The position numbers and the translations under genes are program-made. Below the pieces are notes generated by a model. The model saw only the letters and a list, made by a program, of their open reading frames with translations. It made no database searches and was not told the DNA's origin. A DNA stretch of 64,000 bases from Polaribacter ponticola (GTDB lineage Bacteria; Bacteroidota; Bacteroidia; Flavobacteriales; Flavobacteriaceae), in the NCBI RefSeq assembly GCF_026191475.2, contig NZ_JAOSLC020000003.1, forward strand, positions 899,001-963,000, written 5' to 3'. Positions 7,677 to 48,216 of this stretch are shown here, one piece after another. Positions within the stretch are counted from its first letter, which is position 1; the number at the start of each line of letters is the position of its first letter.

Positions 7677-7677
7677 A

Positions 7678-18280: not shown

Positions 18281-21200
18281 ATGAGTACTACAAAAAAATT
18301 GCATTGTAGTAGGTATAATCCTACTTTTTATCAAATCTGCTTACAGTTTAACTCCTTCAATTACAGACAACGATTTTAATCTTTTTAAAGATATTACTTC
18401 GATTGTAAGTGATAAAATTAAAACCAGCTCTGAAGAGAATAATTCTTTTTGGAAGAATCATGAATCAAACTGGAAAAAAACAGAAAACTTTAACTCTAGT
18501 AACTACTGGAATCAAAAAGAATCTACTTTTATAGTAGTAAACTCTACAGGAAACACTGTTACTATAAGTAATAAAAAAATCAGCTCTAAAAAAGACGATT
18601 CTTATCAAACTTCAAATGGTAAAAATTATCCTAAAAGCTATGAATCTGGAGAAATTAGATACAAGGGTTTCCGCTTTACAAATTTAAACATACCTTCTAA
18701 CGCAGTAATTACAGATGTAAAACTAAATTTAACAGGATACAAATATGGTAATACAACTGTTAATGTAAAAGCAGAAAAATTAAAAGCACCAACTCAATAT
18801 AGTAGCTCAAATAATTATCTATCTTCTACTACTAGAACATCTAACTCTGTTAATTGGAATATCCCAAGCTTATATAACGGAATACAACTAACATCTCCAA
18901 ACTTAAAAGATATTGTACAAGAGGTTGTCGATGCTAAAGGTGGAATAACAAATTTATCTTTAATCATTTCTTCTAGTACAAAATGGGAAGGTTGGAATTA
19001 CGATGATGGGAGTTCTACCTACTATCCAAAAATAAACATTACTTATTCTACTGCAAGTATAGAACTTGAAGACGATTATAAAGAAACAGAAGTAAACATA
19101 CCTGTTATTGTTGATGTTTTTAATAATGACAACAACTTACCTACTAACGGAACTGTAAAAATAAGCGTAGAACCAACTAACGGAACTGTTGTTATAGTTG
19201 ATACAAACCTTACTCCAAACAATCCTGGTGATGATGTTGTTACCTACGTGCCTAATTTAAACTATGTTGGTTCTGACTCCTTTAAATATAAAGTATGTAA
19301 CAGCAGTACAAACGAGTGCGAAACTGCATCAGTTAACATTGTTACCAACTCAACTATAGACAATTGTGATGCACTTGCTTCTGGAAACTTAGATACAGAT
19401 GGAGATGGTGTTTCTGATATTTGTGACTTAGACGATGATAATGATGGTATCTTAGACACAGACGAATGCCCTGTTGTTACTCCTTTCTTATTTAAACTAA
19501 ATGACAACAACAAAACATTTAAAAGTAGTGGTAGATCTGGAGATATTGGAGATACAATGCTTTATAAAAACGTGGGTACAAGTTTTGGTGTTATCATCGA
19601 TTTAAAAATTACTGTTACAGCAAATTCGGATCCACAAAACATGACCATAGATATTAGTGGTTTTAAATACGGATCAGATTTATACCCAATTTTATTAGGC
19701 GGTACAAATACTAAGGAAATCCCTTCAGCAACTGTTAAATTCGAATTTTTTAAATCAAATACAGATCAATTAGTAAATGTAGCTCCTTCATTTTTATTTA
19801 AAGATATAGATCATTTAAGTGATGGTACTGGTGAGTCTTTAGAAATAGACAACAACCTCGTTAGTAGCTATTCTTTATCTAAAAACCCATCAACGGATTT
19901 ATATATTGTAGACAATATTTCTACAAATTATACAGGTGCTTCTGGTAATTTCTTAAGAGTAAATTCTAAAAAAGAAGAAAGCAGCCTTAATAGCGAAAAT
20001 TTATGGCTTGGACTTCAACTATTAGAAGTTAACTCATTTAACATAAACATATTAAAAAGAACAGGAAATACAGGTTATGTTTTTGAATCTGACACTTTTT
20101 CTAACAGCACAACTACATATCAGTTAGACGCAGATTGCTCTATAGATACAGATAATGATGGTATCCCAGATTATTTAGACACAGATTCAGATAATGATGG
20201 TTGCCCAGATGCAACAGAAGCAGAAAAAAACATGCAAACAACTGCAACTCTTAGCGGTGGTAGTAAAGGTGGTAGTTCTGCTAACTTAGGAACTGTTTCT
20301 AACAAAAACGGAATTCCGATACCATTTGGAACAGCTAATGGATCTGAAATTGAAGGTCAAAAAATAACTTCTGCTACAAAAACATTCGAAAAAATAATTA
20401 TCAATACAACAGAATTTACCTTAACAAAAAACAAAGAAGAAAATGCAACTTTAACCATAGACGCATCAGCCGTAAAAACAAATACCTTTACAGATGGTGT
20501 TGCTAATTATGAAGACCCTAACGGAACTGACACTTCTAACCTCTTAACTTATAAATGGTACAAAAACTCAGATCCAAGTAAAACATTATCAACAGACGCC
20601 ACATATTTAGCTAAAAAAGTAAACCTTTCTAACAAAGGAGATTATACAGTAGTTATAACGGGAGCAAATTCTTCTTGTTCTGAAGAAGTTACATTTACTT
20701 TAAACGTAAACGACACACCTACAGCCTCTAACGACAATCTAACTGTTAATGAAGATTCTACAAATAACTCTTTAAATATTTTAACCAATGATTCTTTTGG
20801 TGGTGATGGAGCAAATTCTGGAACAATTTCTATAACTTCAATTACAACTTCTGAAAACGGAACAGTTTCAGTAGATAATAACGCAACACCTTCTAATCCT
20901 TTAGACGATAAAATTACATATACTCCACTTGCAGATTTTAGTGGTTCAGATTCTTTTACTTATACAATTACAGACGCAGATGGAGATACTTCTACAGCAA
21001 CAGTAACTGTTAATGTAACCTCTATAAACGACGTTCCTACTTCTGTTGCAGACACAGTAACCATAAATGAAGATTCAACCAACAACTCAATTAATGTTCT
21101 AGACAATGATTCTTTTGGTGGAGACGGAGCTAACTCTGGCGCTATTTCTATCGCTTCTACTACTTCTAACCAAGGAGGAACTGTATCTGTAGACAATAAC

Positions 21201-24200: not shown

Positions 24201-27200
24201 TCTGTAAATGACACGCCAACTTCTGTTGCTGATACCGCAACGGTAGACGAAGACACAACAAACAATACTATTAACGTAACTAGCAATGATAATTTTGGAG
24301 GTGATGGACCTAATTCTGGTACTATCTCAATTATTTTCGATACTACAAGTAAAGGCGGAACAATAGCAGTAGACAACAACGAGACACCTACTAATCCACA
24401 AGATGACAAGATTATTTATATACCTTTAGCTAATTTTAATGGTACAGATACTTTTAGTTATACTATTACAGATGCAAATGGAGATATTTCTTCTTCTCAA
24501 GTAACAGTAACCGTAACTTCTATTAACGATGTACCAACAGCTACTGCTGATACAGTTACAGTTGACGAAGACAGTACTACAAATTATATTAATGTTTTAG
24601 AAAATGATAATTTTGGTGGTGATGGAGCTAATTCTGGTACAATCTCATTAGTTACTACAGTTTCTAACAACAACGGTTCCTTAACTATAAACAATAACAA
24701 TACTCCAAACAATCCTAGTGATGACGGTATTTTATATACACCAGCAACTAATTTTAATGGTTCTGATACTTTCAGTTACTCTATAACAGATGCTAATGGA
24801 GATGTTTCTACTGCAGAAGTTACTGTTACAGTTACATCTATAAACGATTTACCAAAAACCACTTATGATACTGTTACTATAAACGAAGATTCTACAAGTA
24901 ATTCTTTTGATGTTTTAGTTAATGATTCTTTTGGTGGTGATGGACCAAATAATGGAAGTATAGTAATTGCCTCTAGCACAACAAATCAAGGAGGATCTGT
25001 TACAATTGATAATAATGGAACTGAAAATAACCCAACAGACGACAAAATAATTTACACACCAATAGCCGGAAGCACAGGTTCTGATTCTTTTGAATACACA
25101 ATTACTGATGCAAACGGAGATACTTCATCAGCAACTGTAAATATTACAATAAATGCTTCTGGAGTAAAATACAATCCAACTGCAGCTGCAGATTGTTTTA
25201 ATATTTTTGTACAAAATAACCTAACAGTTGCAAACGGAGATACTGCTGGAAGTATAGCAGCTGGTGGAAACTTAACTTATAACGAAAACTACTCAATCAC
25301 TTCAGAAGATTGTGGTTGTTTTTCTGTGAACGATGTTAATATTGGTATGTTAATTGGTGGTAAAGTATCTTACCCAGAAACTGGAATCTTTACAATTACT
25401 AATGAAAATCAGTATATAAAAATTGGAGAAGAAAATAACACAACTGCTTGGTATCAAAACCCAGACAATACGTATTCTCCAATAAGAATTACACCACAAG
25501 ATAACTACGAAGCTAACGCATACATTCAATTAGCAAGTAATTCTACATCTTTAGATGTTTCTAACAGTAAAAATCCTGTTTTTGAAAACAATATTATAGA
25601 TTTTGATATGGCATTTCAACAATTACAAACGAATGCAATTAGCATGTCTAAAGAAACAAACAATGCTTCTGTTTTAAACACAGATTACGAAGCTATTTCT
25701 AACAATAACCTTCCTTCCGAAATTGTTATTGGTTTAAATAACGGAATTAACTACCTAAACATTACTGCAGAAGACTTAAATAACGTTACAAGTGTAGAAT
25801 TTTATGATCAACCAAATTCTTCTAGAGTATTAATTATTAATGTAAATACTACAGAATCTTTTGATTGGAATGTTTGGGAGCAAAAAAACCTTGATGAAGA
25901 AAGTAATGCATACATCCTTTACAACTTCTATAATTCATCAACCTTAAATATTTTAAATAGCAATACTATTCAAGGTACAATTCTTGCACCATTTGCAGAT
26001 ATTAACAAAACAGTAAACAAAGCTAATATAGCAGGTCAAATAATTGGTAAATCATTAAATATTGACGGTGGAGAAGTTAATTGTGATGTTTTTGACGCAC
26101 AAGTTTATAGTCCAAAAGACGCTAACACATCTCCAATTGCAGAATTTACATCAGATAAAGAAAATGATTGTTTAGTAGATAATAAATTTACATTTACTAA
26201 TAATTCTAACACAGGCACAAATTCACAACCAACAGAACCAATATCTTATTCTTGGGATTTTGGAGATGGCTCTAGCAGCATATTTATGAATCCTTCAAAA
26301 ACATATTCAAAGGCTGGTGTTTACGATGTAAAGTTAACTGCAACCAACAAGTACGGATCTACAGATAAGACAATTCAAATTGAAATAACTACTACAGCAG
26401 ATATCGATGTTACAGAAAGTAATAGCACCGTAGATGAAGATGCAGGATCAGTTACAAAAGAATTCACTTTAAACAACGACACAGATTACACTAGTTATTC
26501 TTGGTCATTATCTAATGTTGGCGAAAACTTACATCTAAATGAAAAAGTAGTTTCATTTGAATTTACTGAAGAAGGTGAATATGATTTAACAGTAACAGTA
26601 ATTAATAACAACTGTAGCAACACAAAAATAATTCCAATTACAATTACATCAGATGAAGTTAGCACAGGAAACGATGGTGGCTTAGAAAGTGAAAGTTTAG
26701 GAGACGCTATTTCAATTAGATATTTTAAAAGAAAAGTTAAAAGTGTACCTACTATTTTTAAGAAAACTAGAGACATTATATATAACAAGAAAAATCTTCA
26801 GAAAAATTAGTTAGAAAATCTAGCGATTTAGAAATGTTAGACATGTTCCCAGATCAATTAATTGTTGGTGATATTGCCCATGTAACTTCACCTACAGATA
26901 TATTAGATTTTACAGTTGCAGATGAAGTTTTAAGTGTAGATTTTTCTATTGATGATAAAACAATAGGAGTTGTTTTAGGTGTAAAAACATTAGATCAAAT
27001 TTACAACCACACCAAAGCAACTTGTGATCGTTTAAGAGGTGCAGAAATTTTAAATGTAAAAACTGTAGAAATTGATGGATACAACTTCTTAAAACAAGCC
27101 ATTAAACAAAGAAGTGGTGTAATTGAACACGCAATTTCTTTTGCAGTTGGTAAAAACACAAGTGATGAGTTTTACTCTCTACAAACCAATTGGTATGTTT

Positions 27201-28366
27201 TCGATTATTCTGCTTCTAATGCCGTTTATAATTTTCAAGTTTGGGCTTCAGAACCAGAGAATACAGAAAAAATGGTAAAAGATATTCTTGCAAATCTAAA
27301 CAACTACAAACCTTTAGATCAAACAGAAAAACAAAAATTACCAAAAACTTTTGCTACAAAAGTTTCTAGAGTTTCAGACAATTTAGTTGTTAATTTAAAA
27401 AGTGTTGAAAAAGCTCAGAATTTAGAAATTTCAATTGATGAAAAATTAAATGAAACTACTACAGAACTTAATTCTAGATACACACCAGTAAATACAGAAC
27501 TAGAGCAAACACTTACATTAGATATTAATGATGGTTATGAGTATGATGGTGATGTTAAGTTTGATGGTGAAATTCAAGATGCATTTTACCATGCTGATGG
27601 AAATTGGGGATTAGATTATGATAAAAAGTATACCACAGTTAGTGAATATGAGGTAACTAATAATTTTGAGAGAGATTATAATGAAGGCGAATTACCAATT
27701 AACAGAAATATTCAAGTAAAAGCATATAGTGAATATGATTATTTATCGGTATACAAATCTTTACTTCCAGGTACAATTCCTGCAGACTACACTAATTATA
27801 AATATTTATCTTTTAAAGCAAAAGGAAATGGTATTACGCAATTAGTTTTAGTTAAATCATCTGTAGAAAACTGGGGAGAACAATATAGAACAACGGTTAC
27901 ATTAACAGAAGAAGAACAAACATTCTTTATTCCTTTTGATTCTTTTACATCAACTACTAATACAAATAACATTAATGCAGATGATTTAACTACTATTTCA
28001 TTTACGTATATAGCAGTTGATGCTGGAACTAATGATTTAGATATGAAGATTAGCGATGTTAAATTCACTAAAGAAAATACAGCTCTTAATGTAGATGAAT
28101 TTATTAAACCAATGAAAAATGAATTCTTAGCTTACCCTAACCCAACAGAAGGGAAAGTAAAATGCATTATTCAAAGTGACATATCTACTAGCGCTACAGC
28201 CACACTTTACGATATAACTGGTAAAACCATTTACAACGGGCCTATTAGTTTAACGGAAGGTAAAAATGAAATAGCCTTCAATTTTAAAGCAAAGGCAGGA
28301 ATAATGTTTTTGAAAATAATGAGTTCTAAAGTTAATTATGGTACAACAAAAATTGTATTCAAGTAA
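18281..28366 (+). CDS. Giant T9SS-exported repeat protein A (two apparent frameshifts)
   Basis: The reconstructed protein has about 3360 residues. From the ATG at 18281, a signal peptide (IVVGIILLFIKSAYS) is reached only if the A7 run at 18292-18298 is one base shorter or two longer. The frame is then open from 18303 to 26810. Order: DNRLRE-like beta domain (about 18660-19050); a cadherin-like domain; a thrombospondin-3 block (19390-19470); a variable insert; a second such block (20140-20220); an Ig-like domain; fourteen 106-residue cadherin-like repeats (20710-25160); a choice-of-anchor-A-type domain (25160-26090); a PKD domain with YSWDFGDGSS (26240-26390); and a shared C-terminal module ending in a T9SS type A sorting domain. 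A second shift at 26790-26794 (A5, A6 expected) separates the module starting MLDMFPDQLI. Adding one base there gives exactly the 15-residue spacing seen in paralogues B and C. A surface adhesin role is inferred. Confidence 0.8.
20710..25161 (+). repeat. Fourteen exact 318-bp coding repeats in gene A
   Basis: Each unit encodes 106 residues with the pattern VNEDSTNN, NDSFGGDGANSG, a Thr/Ser-rich strand ending GG, DNNATP, DDKI.YTP, NFNG.DTF and YTITDANGD. The spacing between FGGDG sites is 318 bp throughout (for example 20791, 21109, 21427, 21745, 22063, 22381). Units 1-5, 6-10 and 11-14 repeat in the same order, giving a higher-order period of 1590 bp. The Asp-rich loops suggest calcium binding. 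Confidence 0.9.
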
Positions 28367-28385
28367 TAAATTATTATTCATCAAT

Positions 28386-28420
28386 AAAAAGAAGCAAAAA
28401 AGATATTTTTGCTTCTTTTT
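28386..28420 (+). terminator. Intrinsic terminator after gene A
   Basis: A perfect 15-bp stem (AAAAAGAAGCAAAAA / TTTTTGCTTCTTTTT) with a 5-nt loop and trailing Ts lies 20 bp after the stop codon. Confidence 0.85.
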
Positions 28421-28805: not shown

Positions 28806-31800
28806 ATGATAAATTTTACTAAAAACAATAAATATAACAATATAAGAACATTGTTATTTGCTTTACTTACCTTAATTGTAAGCATAGATTCTTTTTCACA
28901 GAATGATAAATTCAAAAATAAAGCAGAAATTATAGCAGCTAAGAATTCTATAATTGTTTCTAAATCTGAAACTAAAATAGAATTTGATTACAATTCAACA
29001 TTTAATCAATTTTCTACATCGAGTAGATCTACTGTGTGTGAACCAGCTACTTCATCTATTATTATAGATGAATATACTAGTTTTGGTATTGCTAGAGCTA
29101 CAGTAAACAATGGAGGAATACCAACTTTTTGTTTAGATCTAAATGCTAGTTCTCCAAGAATTGGAGACATTTATAATACTACTTTAAACCCGAGCACAGA
29201 TTTAGGGTATAGTAATTCTAACTTAAATTCAGCTACTATAAGGTTAAAAATTCAAAAAACACTTTCTATTTTAACACATCCAATTTATGGTCCTGCTAGT
29301 TTACCTAGTGCTCTTAATGCAAATGTTTATGATAATAGTAATATTTATGAAATAGTTCAAGATGTAATTTGGAAATGGTCAAATAATGAAAATTTATTTG
29401 GTTATAAGTGGATTGCTGCAAACGGAAATGAATATGATGAACATGACCTAAAAAATTGGGTAAATGGTACTCTACCTAATGGAACACAATTAGATGCTGC
29501 AAATGTACATTGGTTAGTACCAAATAATACAAATAGGCAACCTGAGGTTACAATAAATACAAATACTGTTTTAGATTGTTGTCCTACACCACCAACTGTT
29601 ACTACAAGTACAGTAGCTGCAACATCTGGTAATAATGGTCAAATAAAAATAAATTCAACTTCAGGTGCTCAATACTATGGTATTAGCTCGCTTAACGCTG
29701 GTAGTTATAATGGTCCTACAACAATAGCAACAGCTACAAAAATACCAAATTCTCTACCAACTACTATTCTTTCTAATGCTCCTGCAGGTGGAGGCACATA
29801 CATTGTTAGAGTATTTACTTATATAGATGGTTGTTATACAGATTATACAATTACTACACCTGGAGGTATTGATCCTTGTGATGCAACTGCTTCTGGCAAC
29901 TTAGATACAGATGGAGATAATGTTTCTGATATTTGTGATTTAGATGATGATAATGATGGTATTTTAGATACAGACGAATGTAATGACCCTAGTTTAAACG
30001 GAACACTTTCATTTGATGATGCAGGAGTTACTGGAACTGGATTCAATACAGATTACTTAAATATTGATGGCACAACAATGGATATCAATATTTCTTATAC
30101 AAATACAAGTTATATTACTTCTCAATATGAAAGCTCTACTAGACCTAATAATGGTGATACAGGATTTTTTGCTATAGCAGGTAATAGTATAAATTCTGGA
30201 AATTCTAATATTAAAATTAACATTGAATATAATGAAGCTGTAGATGCAGGAAATATGATGATCTATCATATTAATGATTTAAACGGTGGTGGAGATAAAG
30301 TTACTATCAAAGGTTTTTTAGATGATGGTACAATAATTACTAATCCTATTCTTAATCAAGAAGGTGGTACACCTGGAAGTGTTTTCACTATTAATAATAA
30401 TGTAGTTACAGCTAATAGTTCAAATTCTTTAGTTGAAGGACCTGCTGCTAATTTATTTGTAGAATTTAATAGTACAAATATTCCTTCTGGAAAAAAACTT
30501 AAAAAAATACAAATTGTTTGGAAAGATAGAGCTAATAACTCTGGAGGTCATGGTCTAGGAATTGGAGAAATTTATTTTTCAAAAATAGGTGATTGTGATA
30601 CTGATAAAGATGGTATTCCAAATGATAAAGATACAGATTCAGATAATGATGGTTGTCCAGATGCTACAGAAGCTGCAAACAATTTAGATACAACTGCTAT
30701 TTTAGCAGGTGGTTCTGTTGGAGGTAGTTCTGCAAATTTAGGAACTACTGTAAATGCAAAAGGAATTCCAACTTCAGCTGTAACTTCTGCAACTACTGGT
30801 CAAGACACAAATTCTAAAGTAGTAACTGCTGAGCAAATCACAATCAATACTGCTCCAAGTAATCAGTCTCTAACTGCTGGTAACAATGCTAGTTTTTCTA
30901 TAAATGCAACAGCAAAAACTACAACGACTTTTAATGCTGGTACACCAGATTATAATTCAGGAACGAATTCTACAAATTCTTTAACTTATCAATGGTTTAA
31001 AAATTCAGCTCCTAATACTATTTTATCTACCTCAAGTACATTAAACATTAACAATGTAACTCAAGCAAATGCAGGAGATTACACAGTTGTTGTTAAAGGG
31101 TCACAAACAATGTGTCCTGAATTAAGATATTTTACATTAACTACATGTATTGTTGCTGATAATACTACAACTACTGCTTCAATCTCTGAAGATAGTACTA
31201 AAACATTATCTGGTTCGCCTGCTGGTGGTACTTGGTCAATCGTTTCTGGTGGAGGTTCTATTAATGGAAATATCTACACACCTGCTAATATTACCGACAA
31301 CACAACAGTACAAATAAAATATACTATTGCATCCAATGGTAGTTGTTCTGAAACTAATGATATTGCTACTTTTACTGTAGAAGCTTTTCCTAAGGTAACT
31401 GTTTCGAAAATAGATGTTACTTGTAATGGTTTAGATGATGGAAGTATTACTTTTACTTTTCTTGACAATTCTGCAAGAACTCACATAATGTTTAGTTTAG
31501 ATGGAGGTTCGACATACGAAACTAGTGTTGCTGACAATTCTGGAAGTGTAACTTATTCTAATTTAAGTCCAGGAATTTATAATGTTTGGACAAAATGGGG
31601 TGATGGTGATTTTCCACAAGATTTAGGAAATATAACAATTACAGAACCTACTGCAATTACTCCTATCGTAACAGATGTTACAATTTGTTCGGATGAAACA
31701 TATGAGTGGGCTGCTAATAATGTTACTTATAACGGAACTGCTGGAACTCAAACTGTGTTTATATCTGGTGCTAATTGTGCTGCTGATCAAACACTAAACA

Positions 31801-34800
31801 TTACTGTAACTCCAGAACCAACTCCGGTTGTAACTAATGTGACTATTTGTGCTGATGAAACGTATGAATGGACTGTAAATAATGTTACTTATAATGGTTC
31901 AGCTGGAACGCAAACTGTATTTATCGAAGGTGTTAATTGTGCTGCTGATCAAACTCTAAACATTACTGTAACTCCAGAACCAACTCCGGTTGTAACGGAT
32001 GTGACTATTTGTTCAGATGAAACATATGAATGGACTGTAAACAATGTTACTTATAACGGAACTGCAGGAACGCAAACTGTATTTATCGAAGGTGCTAATT
32101 GTGCTGCTGATCAAACACTAAACATTACTGTTACTCCAGAACCAACTCCAATTGTGACTGATGTTACAATATGTGCTGATGAAACGTATGAATGGACTGT
32201 AAATAATGTTACTTATAACGGAACTGCAGGAACTCAAACTGTATTTATCGAAGGTGCTAATTGTGCTGCTGATCAAACACTAAACATTACTGTTACTCCA
32301 GAACCAACTCCGGTTGTAACGGATGTGACTATTTGTTCAGATGAAACATATGAATGGACTGTAAACAATGTTACTTATAACGGAACTGCAGGAACTCAAA
32401 CTGTATTTATCGAAGGTGCTAATTGTGCTGCTGATCAAACACTAAACATTACTGTTACTCCAGAACCAACTCCAATTGTGACTGATGTTACAATATGTGC
32501 TGATGAAACGTATGAGTGGGCTTTCAATAGTGTTACTTATAATGGTTCAGCTGGAACGCAAACTGTATTTATCGAAGGTGTTAATTGTGCTGCTGATCAA
32601 ACTCTAAACATTACTGTTACTCCAGAACCAACTCCGGTTGTAACGGATGTGACTATTTGTGCTGATGAAACATATGAATGGACTGTAAACAATGTTACTT
32701 ATAACGGAACTGCAGGAACTCAAACTGTATTTATCGAAGGTGCTAATTGTGCTGCTGATCAAACACTAAACATTACTGTAACTTCAGAACCAACTCCGGT
32801 TGTAACGGATGTGACTATTTGTTCAGATGAAACATATGAATGGACTGTAAACAATGTTACTTATAACGGAACTGCAGGAACTCAAACTGTATTTATCGAA
32901 GGTGCTAATTGTGCTGCTGATCAAACACTAAACATTACTGTAACTTCAGAACCAACTCCGGTTGTAACGGATGTGACTATTTGTTCAGATGAAACATATG
33001 AATGGACTGTAAACAATGTTACTTATAACGGAACTGCAGGAACTCAAACTGTATTTATCGAAGGTGCTAATTGTGCTGCTGATCAAACACTAAACATTAC
33101 TGTTACTCCAGAACCAACTCCAATTGTGACTGATGTTACAATATGTGCTGATGAAACGTATGAATGGGCTTTCAATAGTGTTACTTATAATGGTTCAGCT
33201 GGAACGCAAACTGTATTTATCGAAGGTGCTAATTGTGCTGCTGATCAAACTCTAAACATTACTGTTACTCCAGAACCAACTCCGGTTGTAACGGATGTGA
33301 CTATTTGTGCTGATGAAACGTATGAATGGACTGTAAATAATGTTACTTATAATGGTAGCGCTGGCTCTCAAACTGTATTTATCGAAGGTGCTAATTGTGC
33401 TGCTGATCAAACACTAAACATTACTGTTACTCCAGAACCAACTCCAATTGTGACTGATGTTACAATATGTGCTGATGAAACATATGAGTGGGCTTTCAAT
33501 AGTGTAACTTATAATGGTTCTGCTGGAACACAAACTGTATTTGTTGAAGGAGCAAATTGTGCTGCTGATCAAACTCTTAATATTACTGTTACTCCAGAAC
33601 CAACTCCAGTTGTGACTGATGTGACTATTTGTGCTGATGAAACATATGAGTGGGCTTTCAATAGTGTAACTTATAATGGTTCTGCTGGAACTCAAACTGT
33701 ATTTGTTGAAGGAGCAAATTGTGCTGCTGATCAAACACTAAACATTACTGTAACTCCAGAACCAACTCCAGTTGTGACTAATGTGACTATTTGTGCTGAT
33801 GAAACGTATGAGTGGGCTTTCAATAGTGTAACTTATAATGGTTCAGCAGGAACACAAACTGTATTTGTGGAAGGTGCTAATTGTGCTGCTGATCAAACAT
33901 TAAATATTACTGTTACTAGTGAACCAACTCCAGTTGTGACTGATGTGACTATTTGTGCTGATGAAACGTATGAGTGGGCTTTCAATAGTGTAACTTATAA
34001 TGGTTCAGCAGGAACACAAACTGTATTTGTGGAAGGTGCTAATTGTGCTGCTGATCAAACATTAAATATTACTGTTACTAGTGAACCAACTCCAGTTGTG
34101 ACTGATGTGACTATTTGTGCTGATGAAACATATGAGTGGGCTTTCAATAGTGTAACTTATAATGGTTCAGCTGGAACTCAAACTGTATTTGTGGAAGGTG
34201 CTAATTGTGCTGCTGATCAAACATTAAATATTACTGTTACTCCAGAACCAACTCCAGTTGTAACTGATGTGACTATTTGTGCTGATGAAACATATGAATG
34301 GAGTGTAAACAGTGTAACCTATAATGGTGCTGCAGGTGATCAATCTATAACTATAGAAGGAGCTAATTGTGCTGCTGATCAAACTTTAAATATTACTGTT
34401 ACTCCAGAACCAACTCCAGTTGTGACTAATGTGACTATTTTCTCTAATGAAACTTATGAATGGGCTTTCAATAGTGTAACTTATAATGGTGCTGCTGGAA
34501 CACAAACTGTATTTGTAGAAGGAGTTAATTGTACTGCTGATCAAACACTAAATATTACTGTTACTCCAGTTCCTGTATTTGGTTCAATAGGAGACACAGT
34601 TTGGTATGACACAGATGGTGATGGAATTTTAGATTCAGGAGAAAATGGATTAGAAGGAGCAACTGTAACTTTAGACCCAGGAACACCTGGTAATCCAAGT
34701 GATGATATTACAACTACAACTGATGCTAATGGAAATTATTTATTTGATAATTTATCTGCAGGAGATTACAAAGTTACTGTAGATATTAGTACTGTAACTG

Positions 34801-36659
34801 GTGGAATACCAGCTGGTAAAACTGTAGCTGATTTAGTTCAAACTTTCGATAATGATGGTTTAGGATCTCCTAGTAAAAGTTATGTTCAACTAGCTCAAGG
34901 TGAAGATAACTTAGATCAAGACTTTGCTTTTGTTGCTCCTTCTGGTAATACTACTGGTGGTAATGGTGGTGGTGTTGAGAGTGAATCTCTTGGGGATGCT
35001 ATTTCTAAAATTTATGTAAAACGTAAAAAAGAAAATGTACCAACTATTTTTGTGAAATCTCAAAAGAACATTTATAACAAAACAAAGTTAAAAAACGCTC
35101 AACCATATCAAGGTAAAGGTCAAACATTATTAGACATGTTCCCTACTGAATTAGTAGCTGGAAATGTTGCTAACGTTACCTCTCCTACTGATATTCTTGA
35201 TTATACTGTTGCTGATGAAGTATTAGCTGTAGATTTCTCTATCAATGGTAAAACCAAAGGAGTCGTTTTAGGTATTAAAACTTCTGATAAAGTTTATAAT
35301 CATACTAAAGCTTCTTGTGATCGTTTAAGAGGTGCTGAAATTCTAAACATTCAAAGAATTGAAATTGAAGGATACAACTTCTTAATGCAAGGTATTAAAC
35401 AAAGAAGTGGTGAAGTTGAGTATGCTGTTTCATTTGCTGCTTCTAAAAATAATAATGACAATTATTATAACATTCAAACTAATTGGTATGTTAATCATTA
35501 TACTCAATTTAATGATATGTATAACTTCCAAGTTTGGTCTACTAGACCAGATGATACTAAGAAGTTGGTTGCAGATGTTTTAAATAATTTAAAAACTTTT
35601 ATTTCTGTAAAACAAATTGAAAAACAAAAATTCCCAGAAACGTATGCTTCTAAAATTTACAGAGAAAAAGGTGAGTTAGTTGTAGAATTAAGAAGTACAA
35701 AAGAAGGTAATACCGCTGAGGTTTCTATGGTTGAACTATATTCTGAAACTGCTAATAACATTAAACACAGAAACAATACATTAACTACTGAAATTCAACA
35801 AGCTTTAAGATTAGATATTGCCGATGGATATGAATATGATAGTCTTATTAAAGTAGATGGAGATGTTGAAGATGCTTTTTATCATGCTGATGGTAACTGG
35901 GGATTAGACTATGACTCTCAATACACTGAAATTAAAAATTACTTTGTATGGAATGACTTTGATAGAGAATACCAAGATGATGAGTACACTATTAATAGAA
36001 ATGTAGAAATTAAAGCAACTAGTGATTATGATTACTTAACAATATACAAATCTTTATTACCAGGTACTATATCTGCTGATTATTCTGAATATAAATATGT
36101 AGCTTTTACTGCTAAAGGTTCTGGTTTAATGGAATTAGGGTTAATTAAATCTTCTGTAGAAAACTGGAAAGAGCAATACAGAGTTATGGTAGACTTATCG
36201 GAAGAAGAACAAACTTATTATGTTCCATTTGATATTTTTGCTTCAACTGGATCTTTAAATAAAATTGTAGCGGATGATTTAACAACATTAACTTTTACTT
36301 TCTTACCTGTACAAGCAAATACTAAAAACTTAGATTTAACTATTTCTAATGTAAAATTTGCTAAATCTGCACCAGAAGATAAAACAGTTGGTGTAATTGA
36401 AGAGTTTGAAAACAACTTTATGGCATATCCAAATCCTTCTAAAGGGGATGTAAATGTGTTATTGTTTAGTAAAGTAGATACAAAAGCAACCGTTTCTCTA
36501 TATGATGTAACAGGTAAAGAAATTTACACAGCTCCTAAGAACTTAACTGCAGGTAAAAATGAAATTAAATTTAACGTAAAAGTGAAGCCTGGTATTATGT
36601 TCTTAAAAGTAAATAGTAAAGAAATTAATTATGGTACTTCTAAAGTTATATTTAGATAA
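28806..36659 (+). CDS. Giant T9SS-exported repeat protein B with a thioester-like N-terminal domain
   Basis: A 2617-residue intact frame. The signal peptide ends near IVSIDSFSQ. Residues about 75-240 resemble a Cys-Gln thioester domain, with Cys109 in IPTFCLDL and Gln185 in [11 protein letters not shown]. Next come a thrombospondin-3 block (about 29890-29975), a variable insert, a second block (30595-30670), an Ig-like domain, and a domain resembling the SprB repeat ([18 protein letters not shown]). Then follow eighteen 54-residue repeats with two Cys each (31650-34569), an SdrD B-like domain ([20 protein letters not shown], 34580-34930), a Gly-rich hinge, and the C-terminal module shared with A and C. 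The end ([16 protein letters not shown] to the last GTSKVIFR) is a T9SS type A sorting domain. Exported to the cell surface; an adhesin role is inferred. Confidence 0.88.
31650..34569 (+). repeat. Eighteen 162-bp coding repeats in gene B
   Basis: Each 54-residue unit reads about [17 protein letters not shown], then [14 protein letters not shown], then [19 protein letters not shown], with one Cys near the start and one near the end. Many copies are almost identical at the DNA level, so the array is recent or kept uniform by gene conversion. The last unit has lost its first Cys ([11 protein letters not shown]). Array length is exactly 18 units of 162 bp within reading error. Confidence 0.92.
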
Positions 36660-36682
36660 ATCAAAATAAAATTGACAATATT

Positions 36683-36714: not shown

Positions 36715-36805
36715 TGTTGTCAATAAATTTAAAAATAAATCAATACAAATCAACACTTTAAAATAAAATAAATATAAAATTATCTTAGTAAAGTTAGGTT
36801 TAATA

Positions 36806-36847: not shown

Positions 36848-36973
36848 ATGAACTTCAATAAAAAAACAGTTAAAACTGTACAGTCACTTAGCAAATTTAG
36901 TATTCAAAATGGTTTTATTTTAAACCATAAACTTCATTTAGATTTTATTAAAAACCTAGTAAATAGCAGGTAA
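36848..36973 (+). pseudogene. Short 41-codon open frame after the orphan leader, possible remnant of a paralogue start
   Basis: The frame begins MNFNKKTVKTVQSLSKFSIQ and ends at a TAA at 36971. Its first residues resemble the start of protein C (MNFSIKSINK), but it lacks a hydrophobic signal-peptide core. The leader upstream matches that of gene A. It may be the stub of a lost fourth paralogue or a small regulatory ORF; there is no evidence that it is translated. Confidence 0.35.
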
Positions 36974-37131
36974 AACTTCAACTTATTATTTACAATAAAA
37001 AATTAAATATTATTTGTTGTTACTATAAACAATAAAGCACAAGTTTAAAATAATATTCTAATATCATAAGGAATAAATATTTATTTTTTTAACATTTAAC
37101 AATCTTTAAAAATTGATTCAATCCCCATATT

Positions 37132-43100: not shown

Positions 43101-46100
43101 TTCATATACAACAGACGAGGATACTGCACTTACAATAACACCATTAACAACAGGAACTGCAGATAGCGATCCTGAAAATGATACGTTAACAATTACATCT
43201 ATAAACAACGTAAATGTTACAGGCGGTATTCAGTCAATTACTGTGGATAATGGTACTGTTAACATAGATCTTTTTGCAGTAATAACTTTTACTCCTAATT
43301 CTGGTTATAACGGAACTGTAAGTTTTCCTTACACAATTAGCGATGGAAATGGTAAAAACGATTCAGCTACAGAAACAATTATTATCAATCCTATAAATGA
43401 TGCTCCTACGGCAACTGATGATTCTTATACAACTGATGAGGATATAAGTATTACAATAACTCCTTTAACAACAGGAACTGCTGATAGTGATCCAGAAAAT
43501 GATACTTTAACAGTTGCATCTATTAATGGTACATCAATTTTAATAGGAACTGATAAAACAATAGCTGTTACAAACGGATCTGTAACTTATAATGGAACTA
43601 CTAATGTGATTACATTTACTCCGGAAACTAATTTTACAGGAACAGTGACTTTTCCTTATACAATTAGCGATGGAAATGGTGGTACTGATAATGCTATAGA
43701 AACCATTGTTATTAATCCGATAAATGATGCTCCAATAGCTACTGATGACTCATATACAACAGATGAAGATGTTAGCATTACTCTAAACCCTTTAACAACA
43801 GGAACTGCAGATAGCGATCCTGAAAATGATACTTTAACAATTACATCTATTAATAATGTAAATATAACTGGTAATTTTCAATCTATAACAGTTGATAACG
43901 GAACCGTTATTATCGACCTTTTTGCTGTAATTATTTTTACTCCAAGTACAGGTTATAACGGAACTGTAACTTTTCCTTATACAATTAGTGATGGAAATGG
44001 AGGTACTGATAATGCTATAGAAACTATTATTATCAACCCTGTTAATGACGTTCCTATTGCAACAGATGACACATATACTACAGATGAAGATGTAGCAATT
44101 ATTCTAAACCCATTAAGTGCAGGAATTGCAGATAGCGACCCAGAAAATGATACTTTAACAATCACTTCTATCAATGGCGTAAACCTTTCAGGAGGTATAC
44201 AAACAATTACTGTAACAAACGGAATCGTAGAAATTGATGCAGTTGGTGTAATTACGTTAACTCCTAATCCTAATTTTAATGGTACAATTACATTCCCTTA
44301 CACAATTAGCGATGGAAATGGTGGCACAGATTCTGCTACAGAAACCATTATTGTAAACCCAATAAATGATGCTCCAATTGCAACGAATGATGATTTTTAT
44401 ATAGACGAAGATACATCACTTGTTATAAACCCATTAACTGATGGAATTGCAGATAGCGACCCTGATAATGACACACTAACAATTACTGCAATTAATGGCG
44501 TAAATATTACAGGAGGAGTTCAATCGATTCCTGTAGATAATGGAACTATTAATATTGATAATAATGGAATAATTACTTTTACTCCTAACACAGATTTTAA
44601 TGGCACAATTACATTTCCATATGTGATAAGCGATAGTAATGGAGGTTCAGATAATGCCACCGAAACTATTGTTATAAATCCTGTAAATGATGTACCAGAT
44701 GCTGTAGATATTACAGTGGTAGATCCTATGGATGAAAACAGTATTAATAATGTAATTGATGTTTTAATAAATGATACTTTTGGAGGAGACGGACCTAACA
44801 ATGGCGCTATTACTCTTGTAAGTGGTAATACTGCTAATGGCGGAACAGTTACAGTAAATAATAACGGTACTCCAAACAACCCAACAGATGATACAATTTT
44901 GTATACTCCTGTTGCAGAATTTAATGGTCAAGATTCTTTTCAATATACAATTACAGATTCTAATGGAGACACAGATACCGCAACAGTTTCATTAACAATA
45001 AAACCAGACGGAACTCCTTACAATCCTACATCTGCTGCAGAATGTTTTAATGTTTTTGTAGAAAACAACATCACAGTTTCTAGCGGAAGTACATTTGGTA
45101 GTGTTGCTGCAGGTGGTGATTTAACTTTAAATGGAGATTATAGTATTGCCTCAGAAGAATGTGGTTGTTACACTGTAAATGGCAACGGAATAGGTCTTTT
45201 AGTTGGCGGTAAAGTTAATTATCCGGTTAATAATTCGGTACTTACAATTGCTAACCCAAATCAATATTTAAAAATAGGAGAAAGTAATGGTTCTAGTGCT
45301 TGGTATCAAGACCCAAATAACAATTATAATCCTATAAGAATTACATCAAATTCAGATTATAACGCGTCTTCTCATATTCAATTACAAGGAGCAGCAAATG
45401 CATTAAATGTTTCGGCAAATAACAATCCTGTTTTTGAAAACAATTTAATAGATTTTGCTAGCGCATTTCAACAACTAAAAACAAATTCAACAAGTCTGTC
45501 ACAAGGAGCTCACAATGCCCAACTAACAGATTCTAATGGAAATACAATATCTAATACAAATTTACCTTCTAATGTAAGAATCGATTTACAAAACGGTATA
45601 AATTACCTTAATGTGTCTGGTACAGATTTAAATAACGTAAATACATTTACATTTAATCAACAACCAAATGCAAGTAATGTATTAATAATAAATATTGATG
45701 TTTCTGGTTTATTTAATTGGAATGTTTGGGAACAAGTGTCTGCCGGATTAACAGAAAGTCCTTATATATTATACAACTTTTTTAATGCTACAGAATTACA
45801 TATTAATGGTAATGAGACAATAGCTGGTACAATTTTAGCGCCTTTTGCAGACATTACTAAAACTGTAAATACAGCAAATATTTTAGGCCAAATAATTGGT
45901 AAATCTCTTACACAAGATGGAGGTGATTTAGAATGTGCTCCTTTTGTTCCAAATGTAATTAGTCCGCCAACAACTGGTGTACCTCCAACAGCAGAATTTA
46001 CTGTAAATGATGTTGAGCAATGTTTAGCTGGTAATGAGTTTGTATTTTATAATACTTCTAATACCGGAAATACACTACAACCAGCGAATCCTATTTCTTA

Positions 46101-48216
46101 TTATTGGGATTTTAGCGATGGTACTTCTAGTTCATTAATGAATCCTTCTAAAACATTTGCAGGAGCAGGAACGTACGATGTAATTTTAACAGCAACTAAT
46201 TCTTTTGGATCTAACACACAATTAACTCAAGTAACAGTTTCAAATACTATTAATCACCCAATAGTTACTAAAGCAACTTTAGCATCACCACCAGGAACTG
46301 TAACAAGAGAATTTACATTAGATAATGACACATATTTTGATAGTTACTCTTGGGCATTAGATGGTGTTGGTGCCAATTTATTCCCAAATCAAAAAGTTGT
46401 AACTTTTGATTTTACTACAGATGGTTCATATAATCTTACTATTACTGGTTTTAAAGATAGCTGTACACAAACATTAACATTACCAATTGTAATTTCATCT
46501 GGTGAAGTTTCTGGAGGAAACGGTGGTGGAGTTGAGAGCGAAAGTTTAGGTGATGCTATTTCTAAGATTTATGTAAAACGTAAAAAGAATAGTGTACCCA
46601 CTAAATTTGTAAAATCTAATAAAAACATTTACAATAAAGCTAAATTACTAAAAGCACAAACTTACCAAGGGAAAACGCAAACAATGTTAGAAATGTTTCC
46701 TACTGAGTTAATTACAGGTAATGTAGCCAATGTAACTTCTCCTACAGATATTTTAGATTATACAGTAGCAGACGAGGTTCTTTCTGTAGATTTTTCTGTA
46801 AACGGACAAACAAAAGGTGTTGTTTTAGGTATTAAAACTACCGATAAAATTTACAACCATACAAAAGCTTCTTGCGATAGGTTAAGAGGTGCAGAAATAT
46901 TAAATATTCAAACAGTAGAATTAGATGGCTATAATTTCTTAATGCAAGGAATTAAGCAAAGAAATGGTGTTACAGAATATGCAATCTCGTTTGTGGCCGC
47001 TAAAAATACAACAGACACAAATTATACCATTCAAACAAACTGGTATGTTAATGAGTATATTAAATTTAATGATGTTTACAATTTCCAAGTTTGGTCTTCT
47101 AATCATGAAGATACTCAGAAGTTAGTTAAAGACATTTTAGAAAACTTAAATGCTTACGCTCCTGTTATACAAGAAGAAAAGCAAAGAGTTCCAAGAACTT
47201 TCGCAGCAAAACTTACCAGAGAAAAATCAGATTTAATCATTAAATTAAAAAGTAATGAAATAGGATTGAATACAGAAATATCGATGGATGAAGTGTATAC
47301 TGAAACTACTACAACTCTAAAACATAGATATAACTCTTTAAATACAACTCTAGAACAAACTTTAATTGTAGATATTAAAGATGGATATGAATATGATGGA
47401 TTAATAAAAGTTGACGGAGCAATACAAGACGCTTTTTATCATGCAGATGGTAATTGGGGCTTAGATTATGACAAGCAATACACACAAGTTAATGAGTATG
47501 TTGTTTCTAACAACTTCGATAGAGAATATTTAGATGATGAACATGAAATTCATAGAGATGTAAAAATTAAAGCAGTTAGTGAACTAGATTACTTGGGTAT
47601 TTATAAATCTTTATTACCTGGTAACTTATCTGCAGATTACTCAGAATACAAATATTTAACTTTTACTGCTAAAGGATCTGGTTTAATTGAATTAGGGTTG
47701 ATAAAATCTTCTGTTCAAGAATGGAAAGAACAATATAGAGTAATGGTAAACTTATCAGAAGAAGAACAAACTTATTACATTCCTTTTGATGCGTTTACAT
47801 CTACAGGTACAACAGATAAAATTATTGCAGATGATTTAACAACCATTACTTTTACATTTTTACCTGTTGAAGCAAATACAAAAGAATTAGACTTAACAAT
47901 TTCTGATGTTAAATTTGCTAAAACTAATTCAGAAGCAGAAAACCCTGATGTAATTGAAGAGTTTGAAAACAACTTTATGTCATATCCAAACCCTACTAAT
48001 GGTAAAGTAAATGTGTTATTATTTAGTAAAGTAGATACCGAAGCTACTATTTCTTTATACGATGTTACAGGTAAACAGATCTACTCTGCTCCTGCTCAAC
48101 TTACTGTTGGTAAAAACGAACTAGATTTTAGTGTAAAAATAAAACCAGGAATTATGTTCTTAAAAGTAAATAGTAAAGAAATTAATTATGGTACATCTAA
48201 AATTATTTTCAGATAA
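37132..48216 (+). CDS. Giant T9SS-exported repeat protein C
   Basis: A 3694-residue intact frame. A signal peptide (YTLIVLILSITQFSLS) is followed by a DNRLRE-like domain (about 37540-37950) closely matching that of protein A, and a cadherin-like domain. Then come three successive cassettes, each made of a thrombospondin-3 block, a variable insert, a second block and an Ig-like domain (38270-39560, 39570-40850, 40860-42100). Next: one FGTDG cadherin-like unit; seven repeats of about 107-110 residues with TDDSYTTDED and FPYTISDGNGG (42430-44700); one FGGDG unit; a choice-of-anchor-A-type domain (45010-45950) with GTILAPFADITKTVN; a PKD domain (YYWDFSDGTSS); the shared C-terminal module (46530 on); and a T9SS type A sorting domain ([17 protein letters not shown]). 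A surface adhesin role is inferred. Confidence 0.9.
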   Translation: MNFSIKSINKYTLIVLILSITQFSLSNNLKDLDKKKVSNNENAIPSKSFYEKHESNWNNKENFNSKTRRAPFLRKQQLTKIELSSFNKSSKKFINSKSSSNGTFVINKTLTSGSDDSFQLRDNSNHPNSYEVPSDNVRWKGFRFKNLNIPSNAVISSAVLEIHAYKTRNYNFAGNIARVKGEYLKSPSTFGGSNNYLSNLSKTSEFKDWTIPNISSNGQAIYSPNLKEIVQEVVDSKNGVTHLSLILSTSESWITWNYEDGDSNCYATVRVEYTLQNVAIDTNNDTAVTNSGSSVIVDISNNDANIPTNGNLTITNNPNNGTATIDTNGTPNDITDDTIIYTANANFTGTDSLNYRVCDSNNNNCDTSSITINVSAVPSNPCSAASGNLDTDGDGVSDICDLDDDNDGILDTDECTGTGTSKLDWSTLGIADQAPIHDGTVYTIDGLPITINYSTEINGGTFVPANQYFSSYEAGQRGAFFGYAELGFNNSADDYRDRLIFTMSFGKATSGINFTITDIDQAVDDSWDDAVEIFYTTASGTYNIKTQPTYYTLNSAVALDNESNIDGFEGTGNAEIEETKGNLILDFKNEAITSIRIEYFSTNDAISNPEDQYIGITDILFNKCGDTDNDGIPDYLDTDSDNDGCPDATEGANNLTTKLDLNNGSNGGSSSNLGTTSNSNGIPTNAVVNATTGQANTSATTIAEEITINTAPINQNITANNTVNFSVSASAIKTTIFNNSGTPNYGSGTNSTNTLTYKWFKDTDPNTTLATTSTLAIHNVSASNAGDYTVQIKGANNSCSSIATATLTVDATDPCDAVASGNIDTDNDGISDMCDLDDDNDGILDTEEGEGSCDQSNVANSSSGTGNYQDQLYFFNWSGSDFTDGVHNNDTQTFTLPGNLIITATISNAMNASSYVPTDMNTYSGATLYKLYNTTGTKEALYGANGEDASFTVNFTATKNGNPYPLDFLTLDPESTDSGEHVEFSTNGESWKVLETVGNGGSWTGVGSKTVKTTNTNKSQGNTIYYSYNATKIDVDLNAGGRQAVAFGIWLKCDTDNDGILNHRDTDSDNDGCPDTTEASANLTPSGTLNGGSVNGSSANLGTVSNNNGIPLPLGTVNGNETTGQASTTAVNTAEKITLITSPTNQSINENGSVTFSVQVNAETTTTYNAGSPDYNSGTDTTNSLNYKWFKTSAPNTIISTNRFLTLNNLSASDAGDYSVQVIGVNNTCFITETATLTIENNNICDAVSSGNIDTDKDGVSDVCDLDDDNDGVLDSDENCTGFISQNTNGVWKGKTNSNVTYTYTNTNTQSTQSSFDDNQIEYSINKNGGEQRVEKRGNTNFTISFSPAVPANEIAFAIIDVDVKESEPVNSNFTPTYATYNLKINGGNNPNGVFLSATNKLNNLPQLNYNTNSGLVTMNGDKENQYLILKGKSNNLISSITITSTNISNNSEISGDLIAYSILAKEECDTDKDGISDSLDTDSDNDGCADAKEAASNLYTTATLSGGSNGGSSANLGTNVNANGIPTVAATNATTGQAITTAVTTAELITIDTAPINITANENTTASLTITASAVKTSTFNSGSPVYSNPNGVSTTGSLTYKWFKDSAPNTILSTASTLNINNLTAAKTGDYTIQIFGSNNKCYLEETATISINYLPTAEDDTITGITEGSINNQINVLANNGNNADSFGTDGPNIGSITLPSATTTEGGTVIIDDKGNNDPTDDIILYTPVDNNFYGTDTFDYTITDSNGDTSTATVTISVSSVNDAPTAVNDNYTTLEDTPKVLKPLTKGTNDSDPENDTLTITSINNELITLGTAKTITVPNGSVTYSQTGIITFIPNANFTGTVQFPYTISDGNGGTDSATEIIVISPIKDAPIATDDSYTTNEDVAIIITPLTQGSPDSDPDNDTITIISINSVSITGAIQSIPVTNGTVNIDTNGVITFTPNLNYNGTISFPYTISDGNGGNDSATETIVINPINDAPLATDDSYTTDEDTALTITPLTTGTADSDPENDTLTITSINNVNVTGGIQSITVDNGTVNIDLFAVITFTPNSGYNGTVSFPYTISDGNGKNDSATETIIINPINDAPTATDDSYTTDEDISITITPLTTGTADSDPENDTLTVASINGTSILIGTDKTIAVTNGSVTYNGTTNVITFTPETNFTGTVTFPYTISDGNGGTDNAIETIVINPINDAPIATDDSYTTDEDVSITLNPLTTGTADSDPENDTLTITSINNVNITGNFQSITVDNGTVIIDLFAVIIFTPSTGYNGTVTFPYTISDGNGGTDNAIETIIINPVNDVPIATDDTYTTDEDVAIILNPLSAGIADSDPENDTLTITSINGVNLSGGIQTITVTNGIVEIDAVGVITLTPNPNFNGTITFPYTISDGNGGTDSATETIIVNPINDAPIATNDDFYIDEDTSLVINPLTDGIADSDPDNDTLTITAINGVNITGGVQSIPVDNGTINIDNNGIITFTPNTDFNGTITFPYVISDSNGGSDNATETIVINPVNDVPDAVDITVVDPMDENSINNVIDVLINDTFGGDGPNNGAITLVSGNTANGGTVTVNNNGTPNNPTDDTILYTPVAEFNGQDSFQYTITDSNGDTDTATVSLTIKPDGTPYNPTSAAECFNVFVENNITVSSGSTFGSVAAGGDLTLNGDYSIASEECGCYTVNGNGIGLLVGGKVNYPVNNSVLTIANPNQYLKIGESNGSSAWYQDPNNNYNPIRITSNSDYNASSHIQLQGAANALNVSANNNPVFENNLIDFASAFQQLKTNSTSLSQGAHNAQLTDSNGNTISNTNLPSNVRIDLQNGINYLNVSGTDLNNVNTFTFNQQPNASNVLIINIDVSGLFNWNVWEQVSAGLTESPYILYNFFNATELHINGNETIAGTILAPFADITKTVNTANILGQIIGKSLTQDGGDLECAPFVPNVISPPTTGVPPTAEFTVNDVEQCLAGNEFVFYNTSNTGNTLQPANPISYYWDFSDGTSSSLMNPSKTFAGAGTYDVILTATNSFGSNTQLTQVTVSNTINHPIVTKATLASPPGTVTREFTLDNDTYFDSYSWALDGVGANLFPNQKVVTFDFTTDGSYNLTITGFKDSCTQTLTLPIVISSGEVSGGNGGGVESESLGDAISKIYVKRKKNSVPTKFVKSNKNIYNKAKLLKAQTYQGKTQTMLEMFPTELITGNVANVTSPTDILDYTVADEVLSVDFSVNGQTKGVVLGIKTTDKIYNHTKASCDRLRGAEILNIQTVELDGYNFLMQGIKQRNGVTEYAISFVAAKNTTDTNYTIQTNWYVNEYIKFNDVYNFQVWSSNHEDTQKLVKDILENLNAYAPVIQEEKQRVPRTFAAKLTREKSDLIIKLKSNEIGLNTEISMDEVYTETTTTLKHRYNSLNTTLEQTLIVDIKDGYEYDGLIKVDGAIQDAFYHADGNWGLDYDKQYTQVNEYVVSNNFDREYLDDEHEIHRDVKIKAVSELDYLGIYKSLLPGNLSADYSEYKYLTFTAKGSGLIELGLIKSSVQEWKEQYRVMVNLSEEEQTYYIPFDAFTSTGTTDKIIADDLTTITFTFLPVEANTKELDLTISDVKFAKTNSEAENPDVIEEFENNFMSYPNPTNGKVNVLLFSKVDTEATISLYDVTGKQIYSAPAQLTVGKNELDFSVKIKPGIMFLKVNSKEINYGTSKIIFR
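42430..44700 (+). repeat. Seven cadherin-like coding repeats in gene C
   Basis: Seven units of about 107-110 residues share ATDDSYTTDED, GTADSDPENDTLTITSIN, a DNGTV strand and FPYTISDGNGG, ending INPINDAP. They differ from the FGGDG repeats of gene A, but one FGTDG/FGGDG unit flanks them on each side. The Asp-rich DSDPENDT loop suggests calcium binding. Confidence 0.9.

What the first reader, a model, noticed from the sequence alone, without database searches (positions are those of the whole stretch)
18281..48216. Three consecutive giant T9SS proteins sharing one long C-terminal module on different N-terminal architectures
A, B and C occupy about 30 kb. Their last roughly 560 residues are clearly homologous: [70 protein letters not shown], and a type A sorting domain. 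Everything before this module differs: DNRLRE/cadherin/PKD in A and C, thioester/Cys-repeat/SdrD-like in B. The module, with an apparent galactose-binding-like half, is not one I can name. It could be a dedicated anchoring or assembly unit for a surface-protein family.
Basis: partly seen in the sequence, partly recalled or inferred. Interest (0 to 1): 0.7.

Follow-up and report, generated by a model that had tools for sequence, protein, structure and literature searches.

The report
Shared C-terminal module of giant adhesins
Three giant surface proteins of a bacterium, and many relatives in other species, end in the same undescribed three-domain block just before the export signal, which suggests a common base on which very different surface-protein heads are mounted.

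Summary
Genes A, B and C end in a homologous 480-residue module plus an 80-residue type A T9SS sorting domain. Gene A is frame-broken just inside the module. Two more copies lie elsewhere in the genome. No Pfam or NCBIfam model covers it. It occurs once per protein and starts at a glycine linker with GG[L/I/V]ES. In 150 of 151 complete C ends a type A sorting domain follows. The exception is in a genome without detectable PorU or type A sorting domains. Upstream parts hold at least seven kinds of domain, and the kind changed at least 11 times on a quick tree. D1, not D3, holds most invariant residues, including one lone cysteine. My best guess is a membrane-proximal docking base; function is untested, and published swaps in Flavobacterium johnsoniae show that sorting domains alone can set anchoring or release. 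Corrections: "everything before differs" is too strong, and the choice-of-anchor A domain of A and C was missed.

The parts
18288..26810 (+).
   Evidence: no ATG/GTG/TTG before 19248
25176..26081 (+). Gene A choice-of-anchor A / ice-binding-like adhesive domain (PF20597)
   Evidence: 152.3 bits against cut-off 23.8
26685..28123 (+). Module of gene A, broken in frame within its first ~45 codons (frames 26685-26807 and 26786-28123)
28124..28366 (+). Gene A type A sorting domain
   Evidence: TIGR04183 29.4 bits, cut-off 23; PF18962 26.8 bits, just under its cut-off 27
28806..36659 (+). Gene B, 2617 aa
31668..34569 (+). Gene B array of 17.9 copies of a 162-base (54-aa) unit
34584..34928 (+). Gene B SdrD_B domain, directly upstream of the module
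   Evidence: PF17210 1.6e-17
34977..36416 (+). Module of gene B (480 aa), preceded by the glycine linker [13 protein letters not shown]
35064..35624 (+). Module D1 (residues 30-216): weakly PsbP/Mog1-like domain with the nearly invariant Y-x-H-T-K-x-x-C-D-R and YNFQVW motifs
35625..35951 (+). Module D2 (about residues 217-325): Ig-like beta-sandwich
35952..36386 (+). Module D3 (about residues 326-470): CBM11/CIA30-like beta-sandwich
36417..36659 (+). Gene B type A sorting domain
   Evidence: TIGR04183 29.8 bits, PF18962 34.5 bits
37132..48216 (+). Gene C, 3694 aa
45046..45945 (+). Gene C choice-of-anchor A domain (TIGR04215 / PF20597)
46063..46230 (+). Gene C PKD domain
   Evidence: PF18911
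46534..47973 (+). Module of gene C (480 aa)
47974..48216 (+). Gene C type A sorting domain
   Evidence: PF18962 35.4 bits, cut-off 27

Best explanation
The shared end is an undescribed three-domain module of T9SS type A cargo that works as a membrane-proximal docking base. Shown by sequence and model: it is one unit (helix, PsbP/Mog1-like D1, Ig-like D2, CBM11/CIA30-like D3), once per protein, joined upstream by a glycine linker with GG[LIV]ES to exchangeable head domains and followed at nearly fixed distance by the sorting domain. Inferred: after export PorU removes the sorting domain and fixes the new C end to the surface, so the module becomes the foot of the protein; D3 binds surface glycan and D1, with its invariant residues, recognises a conserved cell-surface partner or ligand, holding long adhesins upright or at a set place, in addition to what the sorting domain itself does.
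For: 150 of 151 complete C ends continue into a type A sorting domain, 145 of 146 with identical modules counted once; the PNP motif of the sorting domain starts 12-40 residues, median 17, after the module in the 149 tails that have it, and these tails are 81-116 aa. The query alignments held no sorting domain. One copy in each of 161 proteins. Junction pattern in 153 of 155 assessable. At least seven kinds of domain in the upstream parts: choice-of-anchor A with PKD, SdrD_B, DUF6923, DUF4114, DUF11, Kelch, Big_2; 11 changes of five upstream classes on a quick tree, SdrD nested among choice-of-anchor A. D1 holds 17 of 25 columns with over 90% one residue, so D1 is kept while heads change. D3 fold Z 12.4 to CBM11, 13.5 to a CIA30/NDUFAF1-type chain. 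It also caps open frames of 7,605 to 11,607 codons. PorU and 46 TIGR04183 matches exist in the own genome.
Against: No partner or ligand is known; a CBM-like fold shows no binding. PMC12618676 (passages) reports for Flavobacterium johnsoniae that the sorting domain alone dictates localisation of swapped substrates and that type A sorting domains give static anchoring or release depending on the sorting domain, which leaves no need for a further docking base. Most type A cargo does without the module (G000: 46 TIGR04183 matches and 5 modules). L086 has D1-D3 in a genome with no match to PorU or TIGR04183, so the role may be apart from T9SS. Recurring gene neighbours are few and mostly confined to close relatives. 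The position before the sorting domain would also arise if the module were just an old C-terminal piece carried along while upstream parts recombined.
Confidence: 0.38

Rival explanations
1. D1 is an active or ligand-reading site: the module is the working part (enzyme or small-molecule/glycan receptor) and the variable heads are targeting adhesins.
For: Residues D86, H109, K111, C114, D115, R116, N183, Q185, W187 are each kept in 157-160 of 159-160 rows, down to 18-25% identity; exactly one cysteine in 134 of 154 full modules; L086 keeps H109, C114 and YNFQVW without head or sorting domain.
Against: L086 lacks K111, D115 and R116 and L084 lacks Y107, H109 and C114; D1's nearest solved folds (PknH sensor, TiME, PsbP, LpqN, Mog1) are not enzymes as far as I recall, and the match is weak (no Foldseek E under 0.001; Z 9.4 at rmsd 4.2).
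Confidence: 0.26
2. The module is an export-compatible cap: like the domain before the RgpB sorting domain, it must pack against the sorting domain for T9SS passage, above all of very long proteins, and has no role afterwards.
For: Nearly fixed distance to the sorting domain; [quoted passage not shown] found on giant frames.
Against: Found also on ordinary ~820-1,100 aa proteins, absent from most type A cargo of the genomes tested; 12-40 residues lie between the module and the PNP motif; [quoted passage not shown]
Confidence: 0.17
3. The module binds environmental carbohydrate (for instance algal cell wall), D3 being a CBM like CBM11, and its place before the sorting domain is only historical.
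For: D3 matches CBM11, CBM30, CBM29, CBM4 chains; Polaribacter and related carriers are largely marine (recalled).
Against: D3 and D2 are the least conserved domains; carriers include Chitinophagaceae, Chryseobacterium and Ignavibacteria; never more than one copy per protein in 161.
Confidence: 0.13

Closest known systems
T9SS type A cargo (TIGR04183 / PF18962), e.g. RgpB, RemA
   Same: Same sorting domain at the C end; surface proteins with large variable N parts
   Different: Most of the type A cargo of this genome lacks the 465-480 aa module, and no Pfam or NCBIfam model covers it
Choice-of-anchor A proteins (TIGR04215, PF20597)
   Same: Genes A and C carry this domain upstream, and so do E (local profile) and D (by eye); the family name says that the anchor differs between bacteria (recalled)
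   Different: Here the anchor side includes the undescribed module; gene B has SdrD_B instead
CBM11 / CBM30 / CIA30 (NDUFAF1) beta-sandwich
   Same: Fold of D3 (Z 12.4 to 1v0a, 13.5 to 7zkq); PF08547 reached at E 0.01 or better by 4 of 63 members
   Different: About 11-17% identity; sugar-binding residues and ligand untested; D3 is one part of a three-domain unit
PsbP/Mog1-like domains (PsbP, LpqN, TiME, PknH sensor domain, DcrB)
   Same: Topology of D1 (Z 9.4 to 4esq at rmsd 4.2 over 134 residues)
   Different: No such Pfam family over its cut-off and no PDB sequence better than E 0.2; D1 has its own Y-x-H-T-K-x-x-C-D-R and YNFQVW motifs
Type B cargo with PorP/SprF shuttle (SprB)
   Same: Giant adhesin-like proteins of Flavobacteriia
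   Different: Sorting domain here is type A; PMC12618676 (passages) says type A goes through PorV and gives static anchoring or release

Membership tests
T9SS type A cargo | C-terminal TIGR04183/PF18962 domain over curated cut-off | tested here: met
   A: TIGR04183 29.4 bits (cut-off 23), PF18962 26.8 (cut-off 27, just under); B: 29.8 and 34.5; C: PF18962 35.4, TIGR04183 not listed for the 3694-aa protein
T9SS type A cargo | Genome has the T9SS sortase PorU | tested here: met
   G000 1365.6 bits, cut-off 420; of 14 control genomes 2 ring, none over the cut-off
T9SS type A cargo | Export and processing by T9SS/PorU | not testable with these tools
   needs experiment
CBM11/CIA30 superfamily (D3) | beta-sandwich fold | tested here: met
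   Z 12.0-13.5, 143-151 aligned residues, rmsd 3.2-3.4 for the five best rows; Foldseek 7e-7 to 1.1e-6 to CBM11
CBM11/CIA30 superfamily (D3) | sequence match over Pfam cut-off (PF08547, 24 bits) in a window copy | tested here: not met
   best in window A at 21.7 bits; none for B and C modules at E 0.1; 4 of 63 family members at E 0.01 or better
CBM11/CIA30 superfamily (D3) | carbohydrate binding | not testable with these tools
   no ligand data; no coordinates to map the cleft
PsbP/Mog1-like fold (D1) | fold | tested here: inconclusive
   Z 9.4, 9.3, 8.2 to 4esq, 7cu9, 2xb3, but no Foldseek E under 0.001
Choice-of-anchor A proteins | TIGR04215/PF20597 over cut-off in genes A and C | tested here: met
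   C 144.7 bits, A 152.3 bits
Choice-of-anchor A proteins | same domain in gene B | tested here: not met
   not among B's matches; SdrD_B stands there
Type B cargo with PorP/SprF | TIGR04131 sorting domain in the window genes | tested here: not met
   not among the matches of B, C and the second frame of A. Of 151 tails two reach TIGR04131 weakly, E 0.002 and 0.0044

The most novel reading that the evidence does not exclude
D1 is a new secreted cysteine-dependent or cofactor-binding domain: the lone, nearly invariant Cys114 with His109, Lys111, Asp115, Arg116 and the facing Asn183/Gln185/Trp187 form a catalytic or covalent-linkage site, so that the module itself ties giant surface proteins to the envelope (or to each other), beside the PorU route.
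Probability: 0.08. Interest if true: 0.8.

Novelty: new variant of a known kind. Interest (0 to 1): 0.45.

Why it matters
Type A cargo of T9SS ends up either fixed on the surface or in the medium. PMC12618676 (passages seen) assigns this to the sorting domain itself. A module that stands directly before the type A sorting domain in nearly every carrier seen, with one fixed core and exchangeable heads, makes a testable case that the region before the sorting domain also carries instructions, at least for large adhesins. It also gives a name and a likely position to a long stretch of proteins that are otherwise recognised by their sorting domain and common repeats, and a domain model built from it would be useful for annotation at once.

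Tried and rejected
Whole-module match to a described domain: none in Pfam or NCBIfam; the weak matches listed (DUF5382, RseP, trehalase, one choice-of-anchor A at 1.1e-4 and others) are scattered over few members; PDB by sequence gave only E 0.2 or worse. The Foldseek top hit to a Vip3-type chain, and two more such rows, were set aside: TM 0.15 and rmsd about 20 point to a patchwork of beta domains. Conserved gene partner: among the 69 of 76 loci of 8 kb or more, the widest recurring neighbour family, response-regulator-like proteins, is in 13 loci and the rest in at most 8, mostly of close relatives, e.g. capsule-export-like genes beside 5 Mesonia/Salegentibacter loci. Programmed frameshift or phase switch in gene A: considered, since A and the copy D both lose frame early in the module, but aroE in the window and an MFS gene in L010 look broken too, and among the other same-genus matches listed only one, a distant copy in G024, holds a stop; so assembly indels are likelier, though not shown. 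A family member in G164 is also split over two frames. Dating of the head exchange: the tree is a quick one without bootstrap and 32 of 126 labelled rows are 'other', so 11 changes is a floor for these labels only; labels rest on a local profile for choice-of-anchor A and on text patterns for the rest, and those of gene A's second frame and of D were set by inspection. One pattern label (L144) was wrong and was corrected, which lowered the count from 12 to 11. Literature: searches listed papers (titles and abstract starts seen), none of which names such a module there; searches returned none; two searches were for fold and sorting-domain background. The library lacks most subscription journals.

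Of 151 tails 146 have distinct module sequences, and 127 of 154 full-length modules remain after thinning at 85% identity. Of the 71 tails of the named loci TIGR04183 itself is met at E 0.01 in 66, and a profile built here from the 80 other tails in 70. For the structure model 61 of 76 loci plus two window copies were used; 15 truncated, masked or near-identical loci were left out.

Full report
What is in the window. Three co-oriented genes lie at 18288-28366 (A), 28806-36659 (B) and 37132-48216 (C). B and C each end in 560 clearly homologous residues: a 480-residue module (B 34977-36416, C 46534-47973) and an 80-residue T9SS type A sorting domain. A ends in the same parts, but its frame is broken: the long frame closes at 26807, 41 codons into the module, and the rest continues in another frame to 28366. 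Two further copies are in the same genome, E (contig 2, 777009-778448, minus) and D (contig 2, around 29.9-31.4 kb, also broken in frame in the same part of the module). The other four copies are 55-79% identical to B over the module. The genome has 46 matches to TIGR04183, so the module sits on a minority of its type A cargo.

What stands upstream. A and C both have, before the module, a choice-of-anchor A (ice-binding-like adhesive) domain and a PKD domain; E has the former by a local profile (L087) and D by eye. B has SdrD_B there, after 17.9 copies of a 54-residue repeat. A, B and C also share a thrombospondin-3-like/Ig-like block further up.

How far the module reaches. A scan of named genomes with the five-copy alignment, sorting domain removed, gave 79 confirmed stretches of 126 candidates and 76 distinct loci: Polaribacter, Flavobacterium, Mesonia, Brumimicrobium, Chryseobacterium, Psychroflexus, Salegentibacter, Chitinophagaceae, Ignavibacteria and others. 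The genomes drawn overlap between these searches. Some carriers in one genus have open frames of 7,605 to 11,607 codons that end in module and sorting domain.

Always before the sorting domain. Of the 76 named loci 71 have a complete C end; 70 of these continue into a sorting domain by a profile built here, and TIGR04183 itself is met at E 0.01 or better in 66 of 71. Together 150 of 151, or 145 of 146 with identical modules counted once; the tails are 81-116 aa and the PNP motif starts 12-40 residues after the module. The one exception, L086, lies in a genome (G490) with no match to PorU or TIGR04183, while the five other carrier genomes tested, the own included, have both over the cut-offs. 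In the controls of those two searches no genome passed the PorU cut-off and one of 14 passed that of TIGR04183. Among 45 genomes of the phylum of G490 it is the only match. G490's completeness is not told.

The upstream border. Each of 161 proteins has exactly one module. In 153 of 155 assessable proteins the pattern [GADNS][GA][LIVTA]ES, as a rule in a glycine-rich linker, marks its start; one miss is masked sequence, the other is L086. Domains found in the upstream parts of genes A-C and of ten further examples are choice-of-anchor A with PKD, SdrD_B, DUF6923, DUF4114, DUF11, Kelch, Big_2 and Cohesin among others. On a quick tree of 127 modules (thinned at 85% identity) five upstream classes need 11 changes, the least possible being 4; the SdrD class, gene B included, is a clade (support 99) inside larger clades of choice-of-anchor A rows (supports 95-99). 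I read this as head exchange on a conserved base.

Structure. AlphaFold2 on 63 aligned sequences gave pLDDT 92.2 and pTM 0.88. D3 is a CBM11/CIA30-like beta-sandwich: Foldseek 7e-7 to CBM11, VIA-align Z 13.5 to a chain of a complex I assembly intermediate and 12.4 to CBM11. D2 aligns over about 84 residues with beta-sandwich domains of complement C4, transglutaminase 3 and GH2 enzymes, Ig-like by recall. D1 predicted alone (pLDDT 90.6) resembles the PsbP/Mog1 group weakly: Z 9.4 to the PknH extracellular domain, 9.3 to TiME, 8.2 to cyanobacterial PsbP, with no Foldseek E under 0.001. What these proteins do is recalled, not tested here.

Where conservation lies. With 161 rows (effective number 62), D1 holds 17 of the 25 columns in which one residue exceeds 90%, D2 four, D3 two and the leading helix two. 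D86, H109, K111, C114, D115, R116, N183, Q185 and W187 are each kept in 157 or more of 159-160 rows; the exceptions include L086 (K111, D115, R116) and L084 (H109, C114). N183, Q185 and W187 alternate along one strand, so they should face the same side (inference). Exactly one cysteine is found in 134 of 154 full modules, so in these it cannot form a disulphide within the module. The loop 110-119 has block pLDDT about 90 in the whole module and 60 in D1 alone, which suggests that it packs on, or depends on, the other domains.

Interpretation. The heads change, the base does not, and the base is where the protein meets the cell after the sorting domain is cut off. That fits a membrane-proximal docking module best; the CBM-like D3 and the invariant D1 are natural candidates for binding envelope glycan and a conserved partner. 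These binding steps are inference. Against it, PMC12618676 (passages) reports that in Flavobacterium johnsoniae swapped sorting domains alone dictate whether a substrate is anchored, released or moved, so a docking base could at most add to that. The alternatives are that D1 is itself a catalytic or ligand-reading site, that the module only eases export (for RgpB, contact between the sorting domain and the domain before it matters, PMC11285876, abstract passage), or that it binds outside sugars.

Verdict.

Noticed in passing
window 26685-26840 and L010 8000-8060: Genes A and D of this genome both lose their reading frame in the first ~45 codons of the module; intact relatives exist in other genomes.
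   Followed up: partly
window 59071-61816 (minus strand): Two DUF368-like genes in a row (by eye); the second frame runs on without a stop into an aroE-like sequence, and that is itself broken in frame. Together with a broken MFS-like gene (L010 4607-5877) this points to indel errors in the assembly.
   Followed up: partly
window 18285-19248: Gene A's open frame begins with a signal-peptide-like stretch (by eye) but has no ATG, GTG or TTG before 19248.
   Followed up: no
window 31668-34569: 17.9 copies of a 162-base unit in gene B (54 aa) at fixed spacing; no Pfam family other than a doubtful Asp_DH_C match is listed with its best stretch inside the array.
   Followed up: no
G024 contig 1: 1127811, 1133880, 1139949; G042 contig 1: 1000536, 1006605: Module matches at a spacing of exactly 6069 bases, the three of G024 with identical scores: probably recent tandem duplication of whole genes.
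   Followed up: no
   Followed up: partly
L029, L034, L035, L040, L047: In Mesonia and Salegentibacter the module gene lies near capsule/EPS export-like genes (Wzc-, Wza- and PglF-like by eye).
   Followed up: no
L086 476-2404: Lone divergent module in a genome of another, small phylum-level group; signal-peptide-like start, no sorting domain, different C end.
   Followed up: partly
window 5265-12381: Genes that look like heme biosynthesis genes (by eye, no search) stand upstream of the giant genes.
   Followed up: no
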